64,000 nucleotides of DNA, from positions 205,745 through 269,744 of the forward strand of contig NZ_MUGS01000002.1 of the NCBI RefSeq assembly GCF_002222055.1, read 5' to 3'. This document shows, in pieces, positions 11,534 to 14,809 of this stretch. Position 1 is the stretch's first letter. The number at the start of each line of letters is the position of its first letter. The notes under the pieces are model-generated. The model did no database searches and was not told the DNA's origin. It worked only from the letters and a program-made list of their open reading frames with translations. The position numbers and the translations under genes are program-made. The stretch comes from Flavobacterium araucananum. GTDB taxonomy: Bacteria; Bacteroidota; Bacteroidia; Flavobacteriales; Flavobacteriaceae.

Positions 11534-11724
11534 TCAAATTCTTTTAATTTTTAACTTAATTATGTAATCACATCCGTCACATTTGAGAAAACTATTATCA
11601 GCCAGCCGACTAATATATCTATTTCAATTTCGTAATCACAAACAGGGCAATTGTAAATAATATCTATAAGTTTTATAGGCAGATTAAGTACAGTTGGAAT
11701 GTAGAGTGTTGAATATTCTACCAT
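11534..11724 (-). pseudogene. Frameshifted small zinc-ribbon-like gene
   Basis: From the ATG at 11724 the frame reads a coding-like peptide with NCPVCDYEIEID, then degenerates. Shifting by one base near GATATATTAGTCGG continues into SFLKCDGCDYIIKLKIKRI and a stop at 11534. The two CxxC pairs in similar contexts look like one zinc ribbon split by a one-base indel. A 54-codon unshifted ORF (11560-11724) exists, but it loses the second CxxC. The family is not recognised. Confidence 0.45.
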
Positions 11725-11782
11725 GTTTTTTTAATTAACCAAATTGTATATAATAATATATAAAATCGTTGATTTCTTCTCC

Positions 11783-12003
11783 TTAAGAATCAAACTTTAA
11801 AACAATTCTAGAGCATAATTTATCAACCCAATTTTCAATTTCTTCAAAAGAATCTATGCTATTTAGAAAAAGCAAAAGTTCATTTTGATTTGTAAAATTA
11901 TCTATGAACATACCAATATCTTTTTAAAATTATCTGCATAATTTTCATTTGTTTGTGACAAATAATTTTATAAATGTTCAATCTTTTCATTAAAACTTAA
12001 CAT
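11783..12003 (-). pseudogene. Decayed small acidic gene
   Basis: From the ATG at 12003 the peptide MLSFNEKIEHL meets a stop, continues in the same frame as NYLSQTNENYADNFKK, and then needs a +1 shift at the A-rich TTTTAAAAAGAT. It goes on as DIGMFIDNFTNQNELLLFLN and runs to a stop at 11783. One nonsense codon and one frameshift in an otherwise coding-like stretch indicate decay. The length and acidity recall small immunity-type proteins, but I recognise no family. Confidence 0.45.
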
Positions 12004-12083
12004 AGGAATTTTATTTCAAAGGCAAACAAAAACCCGACTATACTCCGTTGTTTTAGAGTCTACATTTTGCAACTTTTGTTAAC

Positions 12084-12290
12084 ATGGATATTAAGCAAAA
12101 ATTCGGACTCAAAATCAAGGAGCTTAGAAAACTTAAAGGATTATCTCAAGAAAAGCTAGCCAATCTAGCAGAGATTGATCGTACTTATTTACCGACGATT
12201 GAAAAAGGAGAGAGAAATGTTTCTATTGAAGTTGTTGAGCGATTAGCAAATGCTTTAGAAGTTAAAGTAAAAGATCTTTTCGATGAATAG
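12084..12290 (+). CDS. XRE-family helix-turn-helix regulator, 68 aa
   Basis: This 68-residue protein is a single Cro/C1-type HTH domain: FGLKIKELRKLKGLSQEKLA, DRTYLPTIEKGERNVSIEVV and a last helix with ERLANALEVKVKDLF. It most likely represses its own operon. Its stop codon lies inside the start of the nuclease-helicase gene (8-base overlap at 12283-12290), so the two are translationally coupled. Pairing a small XRE protein with a large DNA-processing enzyme is typical of restriction and defense modules, where the regulator restrains a harmful enzyme. A near-consensus TACATTTTG lies 15-23 bases upstream of the ATG. Confidence 0.85.
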   Translation: MDIKQKFGLKIKELRKLKGLSQEKLANLAEIDRTYLPTIEKGERNVSIEVVERLANALEVKVKDLFDE

Positions 12291-14256
12291 GGCTTATTAT
12301 TCAGGTTTCATTGCGAGTTTTGTTAATGAAGATCTTACAAGCGTATTAGGTGTTATTTCTTTTAATTCAGGGAAAGATGATATACTACAAAAGAATGCTT
12401 GGAAAAGACAAATAGAAATTCTGCAAAAAGAATTAAAAGGGGTTACGGGTAAAATATTTTTTGAGTTTACAATTCCACGAATGGGAAAGAGAGTCGATAA
12501 TATTTTAATTATTAATAATTGCATTTTTGTTATAGAATTTAAAATAAATTCAAAAAAATATGAGAAACATGCTATAGACCAAGCTTTCGATTATGGATTA
12601 GATTTGAATAATTTTCATGAAGGAAGCCACGCAAAAAATATTATTCCAATTTTAGTTGCTGATAAAGCTGAAGATGAAAAAAATATTTATAGAAAATCTA
12701 TAGATAATTTACAGAATACGATTGTTGCAAATGAAAATAATTTATCAGAAGTAATATCAGAAACGTTATTAAAATTTAAAAATTTAGAGAATATAAATGT
12801 TGAGAGTTGGGAAAAATCGATATATAAACCAACACCAACAATTATAGAAGCGGCTACAGCTTTATATAAAAAACATAGTGTTTCTGAAATATCAAGAAGT
12901 GATTCAGGAGCAGAAAATTTATCTGTGACCTCAGAATGTATTTCTAAAATCATAGATCATTCAAAAGAAACAAATAGAAAATCAATTTGCTTTATAACTG
13001 GAGTTCCTGGCGCAGGAAAAACACTAGCAGGATTAAACATTGCTAATTTACGTTCAAATTATGAAGAAGAAGAACATGCTGTTTTTCTATCTGGCAACGG
13101 TCCTTTAGTTGATGTGTTAAGAGAAGCATTGGCTAGAGATAAATATACAAGTGCGAAAGAAGATAATGAAAAGTTGACAATGGATGCGGCTAGATCTCAA
13201 ATAAAGTCTTTTATTCAAAATATTCATCATTTTAGAGATGATGCAATAAAAAATCCTGAAAATGCACCAATAGAAAAAGTAACCATTTTTGACGAAGCGC
13301 AAAGAGCATGGACGACAGAAAAGGCTTCAAGTTTTATGAGGATTAAAAAAGGAATTCCAGATTTTAATAAATCGGAACCCGAATTCCTTATTGAAGTAAT
13401 GAATAGACACAAAAATTGGTGTACAATAGTTTGCTTAATAGGAGGAGGACAAGAAATTAATACTGGAGAAGCTGGTTTAGAAGAATGGATTAGACCATTT
13501 TCTAATAAGTTCCAAGATTGGGATATTTATTATTCTTCTAAAATTGTTGATGATCTGAACTATATTAAAGATAAAGAAGTTTTGATGATTTTAAAGGATA
13601 AAAAAGCAATAAAGCAAAGAGAATTACATTTGTCGGTTTCCCTGAGATCATTTAGAAGTGCTCAATTATCTGATTTTATTCAAGAAATAATAAATAATAA
13701 TATTGAAAATGCTAAGGAAATTTACAAGTTATCTATTAAAGAATATTATCCCATTAAGATAACTCGTGATTTAGATAAAGCTAGAAATTGGTTAAAAATA
13801 TCAGCAAAAGGATCTGAAAGAATTGGAGTTATTGCTTCATCTGGAGGAATTCGTTTAAGACCTTTTGGATTAAACGTAAAGGTAAAGATAGATGCTCCAA
13901 TTTGGTTTTTAAACGATAAAGACGATATACGTTCTTCAAGTTTTTTGGAAGAAGTTGCTACCGAATTTGACATACAAGGGTTAGAGTTAGATTGGACTTG
14001 TGTTGCTTGGGATGGAGATTTGTTTTACGATGATAATAAATGGAATTATAAAAAGTTTACAGGAACTACATGGAAAAATATTAATCCTATAATCACAAGT
14101 TATTTAATTAATTCTTATAGGGTTTTATTGACTAGAGCGAGGCAAGGTATGGTGATTTATATTCCATTTGGAAATAGTGAGGATATAACGAGGCCAGAAT
14201 TTATGTATGATGGTACTTTTGAGTTTTTCAAATCATTAGGAATTGAGGAGATTTAA
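12283..14256 (+). CDS. PD-(D/E)XK nuclease plus DUF2075 SF1 helicase, candidate defense enzyme
   Basis: This 657-residue protein has two parts. Residues about 55-130 hold a PD-(D/E)XK nuclease core: RVDNILIINN with D72, then FVIEFKI with E85 and K87, and QAFDY (Q100, Y104) matching the RecB-type QxxxY motif. From about 235 it is a DUF2075 P-loop helicase/ATPase, with Walker A GVPGAGKT (240-247), Walker B TIFDEAQ (D337, E338), an Arg-rich LSVSLRSFRS and a C-terminal SYRVLLTRARQGMV that looks like SF1 motif VI. All catalytic residues are intact. The layout resembles single-chain nuclease-helicase immunity enzymes. The gene overlaps an XRE regulator by 8 bases, is AT-rich even for this genome, and sits beside decayed small genes. 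Defense is inferred. Confidence 0.82.
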   Translation: MNRAYYSGFIASFVNEDLTSVLGVISFNSGKDDILQKNAWKRQIEILQKELKGVTGKIFFEFTIPRMGKRVDNILIINNCIFVIEFKINSKKYEKHAIDQAFDYGLDLNNFHEGSHAKNIIPILVADKAEDEKNIYRKSIDNLQNTIVANENNLSEVISETLLKFKNLENINVESWEKSIYKPTPTIIEAATALYKKHSVSEISRSDSGAENLSVTSECISKIIDHSKETNRKSICFITGVPGAGKTLAGLNIANLRSNYEEEEHAVFLSGNGPLVDVLREALARDKYTSAKEDNEKLTMDAARSQIKSFIQNIHHFRDDAIKNPENAPIEKVTIFDEAQRAWTTEKASSFMRIKKGIPDFNKSEPEFLIEVMNRHKNWCTIVCLIGGGQEINTGEAGLEEWIRPFSNKFQDWDIYYSSKIVDDLNYIKDKEVLMILKDKKAIKQRELHLSVSLRSFRSAQLSDFIQEIINNNIENAKEIYKLSIKEYYPIKITRDLDKARNWLKISAKGSERIGVIASSGGIRLRPFGLNVKVKIDAPIWFLNDKDDIRSSSFLEEVATEFDIQGLELDWTCVAWDGDLFYDDNKWNYKKFTGTTWKNINPIITSYLINSYRVLLTRARQGMVIYIPFGNSEDITRPEFMYDGTFEFFKSLGIEEI

Positions 14257-14350: not shown

Positions 14351-14809
14351 TTAAGGATAAGCAATATTAAAATAATTTTCAAATGCCTTACAAAGTAAAT
14401 CCTTATCTACTTCAAACAATTCATTCCTAACATCCCAATCTTTGATATATTCTTCATCGCTTTCGCTAATTTCTTCCCCATAAAGTTTTCGAGTTAAAAT
14501 GTCGCTTAACAAAACGCTGTTACAATGATAATACTTTGGATAATATTTCTCAATGAATGCCCAATAATCAAATTTATCATCATCTTCTTTTTCTTCTTTG
14601 TTGTCTTTCTCTTCAAATTCTTTGATTACTTCGAATTCTAACCAACTCATTGCTTCACCAATTCCTTTGTAAAATGCATTTCTCTCTACCCAAGTTTCGA
14701 AAGTATACTTTTTTAAGTTGATTATTTTTTCACAATCATTTAAAGTTTCATTATTATGATATTTCCTTACTTGATCTTTTCCGAAAATTATTTCTGCTAA
14801 ATATTTCAT
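14351..14809 (-). CDS. Hypothetical acidic protein, 152 aa
   Basis: I do not recognise this 152-residue cytoplasmic protein. It has no signal peptide or membrane segment. A strongly charged stretch (residues about 65-80, KEFEEKDNKEEKEDDDKF) divides an N-terminal helical half, with RNAFYKGIGEAMSWLEFEVI, from a Tyr-rich half with IEKYYPKYYHCNSVLLSDIL. Composition resembles small acidic cargo or immunity proteins. It is convergent with the nuclease-helicase gene and separated from it by a bidirectional terminator, so the two are not an operon. It may belong to the same accessory patch. Confidence 0.6.
   Translation of the reverse strand: MKYLAEIIFGKDQVRKYHNNETLNDCEKIINLKKYTFETWVERNAFYKGIGEAMSWLEFEVIKEFEEKDNKEEKEDDDKFDYWAFIEKYYPKYYHCNSVLLSDILTRKLYGEEISESDEEYIKDWDVRNELFEVDKDLLCKAFENYFNIAYP

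What the first reader, a model, noticed from the sequence alone, without database searches (positions are those of the whole stretch)
12084..14256. XRE regulator fused by overlap to a PD-(D/E)XK nuclease-DUF2075 helicase: candidate single-protein defense module
The second gene combines an intact nuclease core (D72, E85, K87 and the QxxxY pair Q100/Y104) with an intact SF1-type P-loop helicase in one chain. It is coupled by an 8-base overlap to an XRE repressor. The combination fits an immunity enzyme held in check by its regulator. The layout reminds me of single-chain nuclease-helicase immunity (Nhi-type) enzymes, but I cannot confirm homology. It lies beside two decayed small genes and an orphan acidic gene, consistent with an accessory island.
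Basis: partly seen in the sequence, partly recalled or inferred. Interest (0 to 1): 0.68.

Follow-up and report, generated by a model that had tools for sequence, protein, structure and literature searches.

The report
Restriction-style timer driving a nuclease-helicase
A probable anti-phage enzyme that joins a DNA-cutting and a DNA-unwinding part in one protein sits behind a small regulator of the kind known from restriction-modification systems, although no protective methyltransferase was found nearby; in a related genome the same regulator switch sits in front of different genes at the same spot, which suggests that it is a portable timing device for defence genes.

Summary
The gene pair is real and at the stated coordinates. 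The 657-aa protein is a full-length match to PADLOC candidate PDC-S41 (931 bits), with a Schlafen-group-3/DUF2075 SF1 helicase and an N-terminal PD-(D/E)XK nuclease whose D72, E85, K87, Q100 and Y104 are invariant in 49 homologues. So the enzyme is a known defence candidate. It is not an Nhi member by the PADLOC model. The XRE protein is better described as a restriction-modification controller (C) protein. A C-box-like operator at 12036-12060 is conserved in all 16 Flavobacterium genomes found with the pair, above an 8-nt C/effector overlap. None of 146 neighbouring ORFs in those loci shows the DNA-methyltransferase motifs tested. In one relative (G042) the same C-box and C gene (90% identical), at the same chromosomal site, precede a McrB-like AAA_5 gene and a McrC-like gene. 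The other four genomes examined at the site carry R-M or HNH restriction genes. Best reading: a mobile, restriction-like effector without linked methyltransferase, under an R-M-style activator/repressor circuit. Phage defence and promoter control are inferred, not shown.

The parts
12036..12060 (+). C-box-like operator GACTATACTCCGTTGTTTTAGAGTC overlapping the predicted promoter of the C gene
   Evidence: One copy in the 5.9-Mb genome at up to 3 mismatches. Pairwise identity 0.91-0.94 around the CCGTTG core against 0.31-0.39 more than 30 bp upstream of it, in 17 genomes. Compare C.PvuII-type GACT-tat-AGTC boxes with central GT (PMC4824078 section 16).
12070..12078 (+). Putative -7 element (conserved AA..TTTGT), 5 nt before the C start codon, implying a leaderless or nearly leaderless transcript; TTG at 12048-12050 as a possible -33 element
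   Evidence: Conserved in 17 genomes. The Bacteroidota promoter consensus is recalled, not from a call. Leaderless C transcripts are common in two C families (PMC4824078 passage).
12084..12290 (+). C protein (XRE/Cro-CI type HTH, 68 aa), R-M controller family
   Evidence: PADLOC Control_protein 75 bits; C.AhdI 1y7y E 4e-14, C.BclI 2b5a E 1e-13.
12283..14256 (+). PDC-S41 nuclease-helicase, 657 aa; residues 1-164 PD-(D/E)XK nuclease, about 131-175 variable stretch, about 195-657 SF1 helicase (Schlafen group 3)
   Evidence: PADLOC PDC-S41 931 bits over 1-657; PF09848; AF2 models and fold matches; conservation.
14351..14809 (-). 152-aa acidic-looking protein without a profile hit above cut-off; recurrent neighbour of the cassette or site
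   Evidence: Cluster of 6 loci incl. window; also at the swapped locus G042; no significant Pfam/PADLOC/NCBIfam hit.
11738..12003 (-). Frameshifted remnant of an 89-aa small gene that is intact upstream of C in relatives
   Evidence: tblastn 74-77% in two frames; intact at -549 in L002 and L003.
11563..11724 (-). Decayed copy of a 61-aa Cys-rich small protein
   Evidence: tblastn 67%.

Best explanation
The pair is a mobile, single-effector, restriction-like anti-phage module (PDC-S41) controlled by an R-M-type C-protein circuit, without a linked methyltransferase. On arrival in a cell, a weak promoter would make a little C protein. C dimers on the C-box would then raise transcription of the C-effector mRNA, and a second dimer would cap it at high C. 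This gives a delay and a ceiling for a potentially self-toxic nuclease-helicase. The SF1 helicase would load on phage DNA or phage replication intermediates, and the PD-(D/E)XK domain would cut. Self and non-self would be told apart by DNA structure or replication state rather than by host methylation. Shown by sequence: families, intact conserved catalytic residues, C-box-like operator, fixed overlap, no linked methyltransferase motifs, patchy distribution, effector swap at the same site. Inferred: DNA binding by C, activation/repression, nuclease and helicase activity, target and phage defence.
For: PDC-S41 full-length match. Catalytic residues invariant in 49. Nuclease fold nearest Can2 (Z 8.4, 3.8 A over 130) and McrC (Z 8.0, 3.2 A over 122); helicase nearest UvrD (Z 14.1, 4.5 A over 326) and SLFN11 (Z 12.6, 4.1 A over 272). 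C-protein kinship. C-box in 16 of 16 Flavobacterium genomes found with the pair and the same 8-nt overlap in all 16; C/R overlaps within about 20 nt are typical of C-controlled R-M (PMC2997769 abstract). In 299 genus genomes the strict C-box occurs in 11: ten at this locus and one, G042, before an AAA_5 (McrB-type) gene plus a 452-aa gene; reversed-pattern control 1 of 299. At the same site: G006 C-like + C5 methyltransferase + MvaI/BcnI endonuclease; G008, G004 and G015 HNH_2 endonucleases. Relatives in viral/prophage-like contigs and plasmids.
Against: No phage assay or binding data exist here. C and effector distances are not significantly congruent (Mantel r 0.27, p 0.086, 14 pairs). Outside this clade most homologues lack a C gene: 3 of 33 such loci have one, of a different subtype, so C control is not essential to the effector. 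Only about three of four C-box half-sites are recognisable. In PvuII the C/R overlap had no detectable regulatory role (PMC2997769 abstract), so the overlap is evidence of layout only. The own genome has methyltransferases elsewhere. Four of 5 more distant C-like genes in the family sit beside a methyltransferase, so the usual context is R-M. Two of 16 copies look broken (G048, G200). The first 60 residues of the window's enzyme are unusually divergent, so this copy might be altered.
Confidence: 0.68

Rival explanations
1. The enzyme is the endonuclease of an ordinary R-M system whose methyltransferase lies elsewhere in the genome (split system); C times endonuclease after methylase as usual.
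For: C proteins usually serve R-M systems: 4 of 5 other family C-like genes lie beside a methyltransferase. The own genome has an N6/N4 methyltransferase on contig C66 and N6_Mtase matches on C71 (strong), C96 and C70 (weak). One distant homologue (L100) has a C5 methyltransferase upstream, one 96-aa gene away.
Against: No methyltransferase motifs in 146 neighbouring ORFs of 16 loci; no C5 methyltransferase in the own genome; a single C-box in the genome at up to 3 mismatches, so no methyltransferase appears co-regulated through it.
Confidence: 0.12
2. Toxin-antitoxin-like pair: the XRE protein binds and inhibits the nuclease-helicase.
For: XRE antitoxins exist; the XRE matches the HipB-like model TIGR03070 (40.7 bits), below its cut-off of 71.65; overlapping genes.
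Against: The closest solved relatives are C proteins. 30 of 33 homologue loci outside this clade lack such a regulator directly upstream. The same XRE stands before unrelated genes in G042, which does not fit a dedicated antitoxin.
Confidence: 0.07
3. Housekeeping DNA repair or recombination enzyme.
For: Nuclease-helicase fusions also act in repair (recalled); NucS/EndoMS and Hjc are among the fold matches.
Against: Present in 14 of 299 genus genomes, in plasmids and viral contigs, with broken-looking copies and at a site where restriction genes take its place.
Confidence: 0.06
4. Diverged member of the Nhi nuclease-helicase immunity family.
For: Same general design (single-chain nuclease plus helicase); weak Nhi matches in 7 of 9 relatives scanned, about 21-27 bits, with AbiO matches of similar size.
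Against: No match of the window protein to the PADLOC Nhi profile at E<=1; PDC-S41 scores 357-931 bits in the window protein and the 9 relatives scanned.
Confidence: 0.05

Closest known systems
PADLOC PDC-S41 (phage defence candidate; single-gene reading of the name is recalled)
   Same: Full-length profile match, 931 bits over 657 residues
   Different: Here the candidate is coupled to a C gene and C-box. No paper in the held library mentions PDC-S41.
R-M controller (C) proteins, C.AhdI / C.BclI / C.Esp1396I and C.PvuII type
   Same: Sequence family, GLSQE motif, operator type, gene order C then nuclease, short overlap, probable leaderless mRNA
   Different: Precedes a nuclease-helicase with no linked methyltransferase; operator partly degenerate
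Nhi (S. epidermidis SERP2475)
   Same: Single nuclease-helicase polypeptide, reported to protect without abortive infection (PMC11811056 passage)
   Different: No profile match to this protein; only remote P-loop similarity in relatives
Human Schlafen SLFN11/SLFN14 helicase domain
   Same: Helicase fold and Pfam family name
   Different: Human N-terminal core is an RNase domain (recalled); here a PD-(D/E)XK domain
Can2 / McrC nuclease domains
   Same: PD-(D/E)XK fold nearest in the PDB comparison
   Different: The 657-aa chain shows no CARF hit and no McrB gene was seen beside it in the window; similarity at fold level only (8-13% identity in the five best rows)

Membership tests
PDC-S41 | Match to PADLOC profile PDLC05014 over its length | tested here: met
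   E 7e-281, 931 bits, residues 1-657 on profile 1-653 of 657
PDC-S41 | Anti-phage activity | not testable with these tools
   Candidate only; [quoted passage not shown]
SLFN-g3 / DUF2075 helicase (PF09848) | Score above the curated cut-off | tested here: met
   266.9 bits, cut-off 24
PD-(D/E)XK nuclease superfamily | D-x(n)-ExK core with QxxxY on the common fold | tested here: met
   D72, E85, K87, Q100, Y104 invariant in 49; fold matches Can2 Z 8.4 and McrC Z 8.0; Pfam only weak
R-M controller (C) proteins | Sequence kinship to C proteins | tested here: met
   PADLOC Control_protein 75 bits; C.AhdI E 4e-14
R-M controller (C) proteins | Inverted-repeat C-box in own promoter | tested here: met
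   Conserved in 17 genomes incl. G042; one half-site degenerate
R-M controller (C) proteins | Activates at low and represses at high concentration | not testable with these tools
   Needs a reporter assay
Type II restriction-modification system | Linked protective methyltransferase | tested here: not met
   0 of 146 ORFs within about 6 kb in 16 loci (two of them cut short by contig ends) have the tested motifs; none in the window except one NPPY 36 kb away, judged chance
Nhi | Match to PADLOC Nhi profile PDLC02372 | tested here: not met
   Not among hits at E<=1; 7 of 9 relatives 21-27 bits, P-loop region only

The most novel reading that the evidence does not exclude
C-protein plus C-box is a portable timing cassette that is exchanged independently of its effector and serves methyltransferase-free defence enzymes (PDC-S41 nuclease-helicase, McrBC-like pair) as well as classic R-M and, in this genome, a DndFG(H)-like set. 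C control would then have evolved to tame self-toxic defence effectors on arrival in general, not only to let a methyltransferase act first.
Probability: 0.45. Interest if true: 0.7.

Novelty: new variant of a known kind. Interest (0 to 1): 0.55.

Why it matters
C proteins are understood as devices that delay a restriction enzyme until its methyltransferase has protected the host. Finding what looks like the same circuit in front of an enzyme with no linked methyltransferase, and in front of a different effector at the same site in a relative, makes a clear question testable: what does the delay protect against? It also gives a simple DNA signature (the C-box) for finding uncharacterised, potentially self-toxic defence effectors, and it turns an uncharacterised PADLOC candidate into a pair with a concrete mechanism to test.

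Tried and rejected
Nhi membership: rejected on profile evidence. Coevolution of C and effector: Mantel r 0.27, p 0.086, not significant. A statistical test of defence-gene enrichment around all homologues, with matched control regions, was not done; recurring neighbours (NUDIX, HNH_2, McrBC, R-M genes) outside the clade are told descriptively only. Viral-contig scan with the single sequence gave none; with the alignment, 9 loci. Papers: DUF2075 with defence terms gave 0, PDC-S41 gave 0, DUF2075 alone gave 5, unrelated by title and abstract start. Searches on C proteins listed 6 of 6, 7 of 7 and 10 of 14 papers; no listed title or abstract start describes C control of a methyltransferase-free effector. 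A review passage tells of one C gene with a Type I locus (PMC12707154). I read passages of several papers, one section of PMC4824078 and the abstract of PMC2997769, no full text; most subscription papers are not held, so absence from print is not shown.

Dropped or unused rows: duplicate loci of one genome or of broken pieces (L001, L005/L010/L064, L007/L012/L066, L002/L008, L017/L022/L070, L018/L021/L071) were counted once. The 33 loci 'outside the clade' include two distant Flavobacterium homologues (L072, L073) and leave out L024 (second plasmid copy) and L049 (cut by a contig end). Wide neighbourhoods were not fetched for G134, G332, G385, G580, G604 and G655; their short loci gave no C match by tblastn. 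G134's copy lies at a contig end, so its C gene could not be judged. Of 10 other genomes with the AsmA-like gene, 8 were fetched, not G009 and G033.

Full report
What is there. The window (34.4% GC) carries a 68-aa XRE-type gene (12084-12290) and a 657-aa gene (12283-14256) that overlap by 8 nt. The stretch 12030-14256 is 29.8% GC. The genus is inferred to be Flavobacterium from 72-81% identical homologues in six named records, five of them Flavobacterium and one 'Flavobacteriaceae bacterium'.

The enzyme. Pfam calls residues 233-628 SLFN-g3_helicase at 267 bits. PADLOC calls the whole protein PDC-S41 at 931 bits. In 49 homologues down to 30% identity, D72, E85, K87, Q100, Y104, K246, D337 and E338 are invariant. 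The full AlphaFold2 model is moderate (pLDDT 76, pTM 0.75). Its helicase part aligns best to UvrD (Z 14.1, 4.5 A over 326 residues) and well to SLFN11 (Z 12.6, 4.1 A over 272); Foldseek ranks SLFN11 first (E 1e-7). The nuclease domain alone folds with pLDDT 88 and pTM 0.86 and aligns to Can2 (Z 8.4, 3.8 A over 130) and McrC (Z 8.0, 3.2 A over 122). These Z values are close to the level where a common arrangement alone can explain them, and no Foldseek row of that search reached E 0.001; the invariant motif is the stronger evidence. Residues 131-175, between the two parts, are the most variable (46% mean identity among the other Flavobacterium copies).

The regulator. The XRE protein scores 75 bits against PADLOC 'Control_protein', and its closest solved relatives are C.AhdI and C.BclI. 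Upstream lies GACTATACTCCGTTGTTTTAGAGTC (12036-12060), found once in the 5.9-Mb genome at up to 3 mismatches. Among 17 Flavobacterium genomes (16 with the pair, plus G042) this block keeps 0.91-0.94 pairwise identity around its CCGTTG core, while sequence more than 30 bp upstream of the core is at 0.31-0.39; the core begins 38-40 nt before the C start. C.PvuII-type boxes are described as two GACT-tat-AGTC operators with a central GT spacer (PMC4824078, section 16); here the left operator and the right AGTC arm are recognisable and the fourth arm is not. A conserved AA..TTTGT ends a few nt before the C start, which suggests a leaderless transcript, as is common for C genes of two families (PMC4824078 passage). 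C-controlled R-M genes have the R start within about 20 nt of the C stop, though in PvuII the overlap had no detectable regulatory role (PMC2997769 abstract).

Distribution. The enzyme occurs in 14 of 299 genus genomes (E<=1e-10), 14 of 397 family genomes and 23 of 395 phylum genomes (both E<=1e-40; the samples overlap), in 4 plasmid records, in 1 unverified phage-labelled record and in 9 viral contigs, some with holin- and amidase-like genes nearby, by eye. Of the 14 genus genomes, 11 have the C gene, two distant homologues (43% and 37%) do not, and one copy is cut by a contig end. Two copies look broken (G048, G200). Of 33 loci outside the C-carrying clade (two of them in the genus), 3 have a C-like gene directly upstream (L087-L089). 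The one tested also resembles C.AhdI (E 3e-14), but the operator is different: an inverted repeat ATACTTATTGTATG...CATACAATAAGTAT in L087 and L088, slightly varied in L089.

The swap site. In the window, L002, L003, L004 and G200 the module lies between an HPF-like gene and an AsmA-like gene. G042 has the same C-box and a C gene 90% identical at this site, but the following genes are an AAA_5 protein (McrB-type domain, 77 bits; PADLOC REase_II 51 bits) and a 452-aa protein without profile hits that carries a DAKYK motif in its C-terminal part, McrC-like by my reading. Of 10 other genomes with the AsmA-like gene, 8 were fetched and 4 have the HPF-like gene within 5 kb. Between the two genes G006 has a C-like gene (50%), a C5 methyltransferase and a MvaI/BcnI-type endonuclease; G008, G004 and G015 each have an HNH_2 endonuclease gene. 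So all 5 genomes examined at this site without the nuclease-helicase carry restriction-type genes there. In the other 4 fetched genomes no HPF-like gene was found in the stretch, one of them being cut short by a contig end, so the site could not be compared.

Control on C-boxes. The strict pattern ACWATASTCCGTTGTTT occurs in 11 of 299 genus genomes, once in each; ten lie at the nuclease-helicase and one is G042. The reversed pattern occurs in 1 of 299. G109 has the pair with a variant box that the strict pattern misses.

Methyltransferase. None of 146 ORFs of 100 aa or more within about 6 kb of the enzyme in the 16 Flavobacterium loci (G197 and G065 cut short by contig ends) shows the motifs [ND]PP[YFW], F[AS]G[AIC]GG or PPC[QN]; this is a motif test, not a profile scan. 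The own genome has no C5 methyltransferase, one N6/N4 methyltransferase on another contig and three N6_Mtase matches elsewhere, two of them weak. By contrast, 4 of 5 more distant C-like genes found in 120 family genomes (own genome apart) lie beside a methyltransferase; the fifth is at a contig end. The own genome's second C-like gene (58%) precedes DndF- and DndG-like genes and a long open frame, possibly DndH. Dnd restriction depends on a protective modification (recalled), so that case is not modification-free.

Reading. The new part is the regulator: an R-M-type controller with its operator, coupled in the 16 genomes found to an effector without linked methyltransferase, and found once before a different effector at the same site. 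By analogy with studied C proteins (PMC12707154 passages), C would first activate and then cap expression. That C protects the new host from a self-toxic nuclease-helicase is inference. How phage DNA is recognised is unknown; replication structures are my best guess, in part because phage single-stranded DNA-binding proteins stimulate several defence systems, Nhi among them (PMC13381803 passage).

Noticed in passing
L143 4402-7892 (own genome contig C85): A second C-like gene (58% identical) directly precedes DndF- and DndG-like genes and a 1386-aa open frame running off the fetched stretch.
   Followed up: partly
L135 5345-8381 (G042): Same C-box and C gene as the window's, followed by a McrB-like AAA_5 gene and a 452-aa gene with no profile hit.
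   Followed up: yes
L067, L069, L082, L092, L093, L097, L098, L099: A family of about 100-145-aa proteins with a ...Y(L/R)(Y/H)RDxxNYK start recurs beside the nuclease-helicase in 8 loci; no Pfam hit for the one scanned; possible accessory or inhibitor.
   Followed up: partly
L002, L003, L068, L074, L101: An 89-113-aa acidic-looking gene recurs just upstream of the module; in L004 it is shortened and in the window frameshifted.
   Followed up: partly
L025, L073, L084, L087, L088, L094: NUDIX-type genes lie within about 0.7 kb of the nuclease-helicase in 6 loci outside the C-carrying clade of Flavobacterium; Pfam confirms the three scanned, L088, L025 and L073.
   Followed up: partly
window 12283-12462: Residues 1-60 of the window's enzyme are 40-53% identical to its syntenic relatives L002-L004, against 65-68% mean among the other Flavobacterium copies; possible recombination.
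   Followed up: partly
L002 11995-12213 (-): A 72-aa C-like gene, similar to the one in the G006 R-M system, lies just downstream of the module, perhaps a relic of an earlier occupant of the site.
   Followed up: no
L100: A C5 cytosine methyltransferase (PF00145) and a 96-aa gene directly precede a distant nuclease-helicase homologue, and a Z1-domain gene follows.
   Followed up: partly
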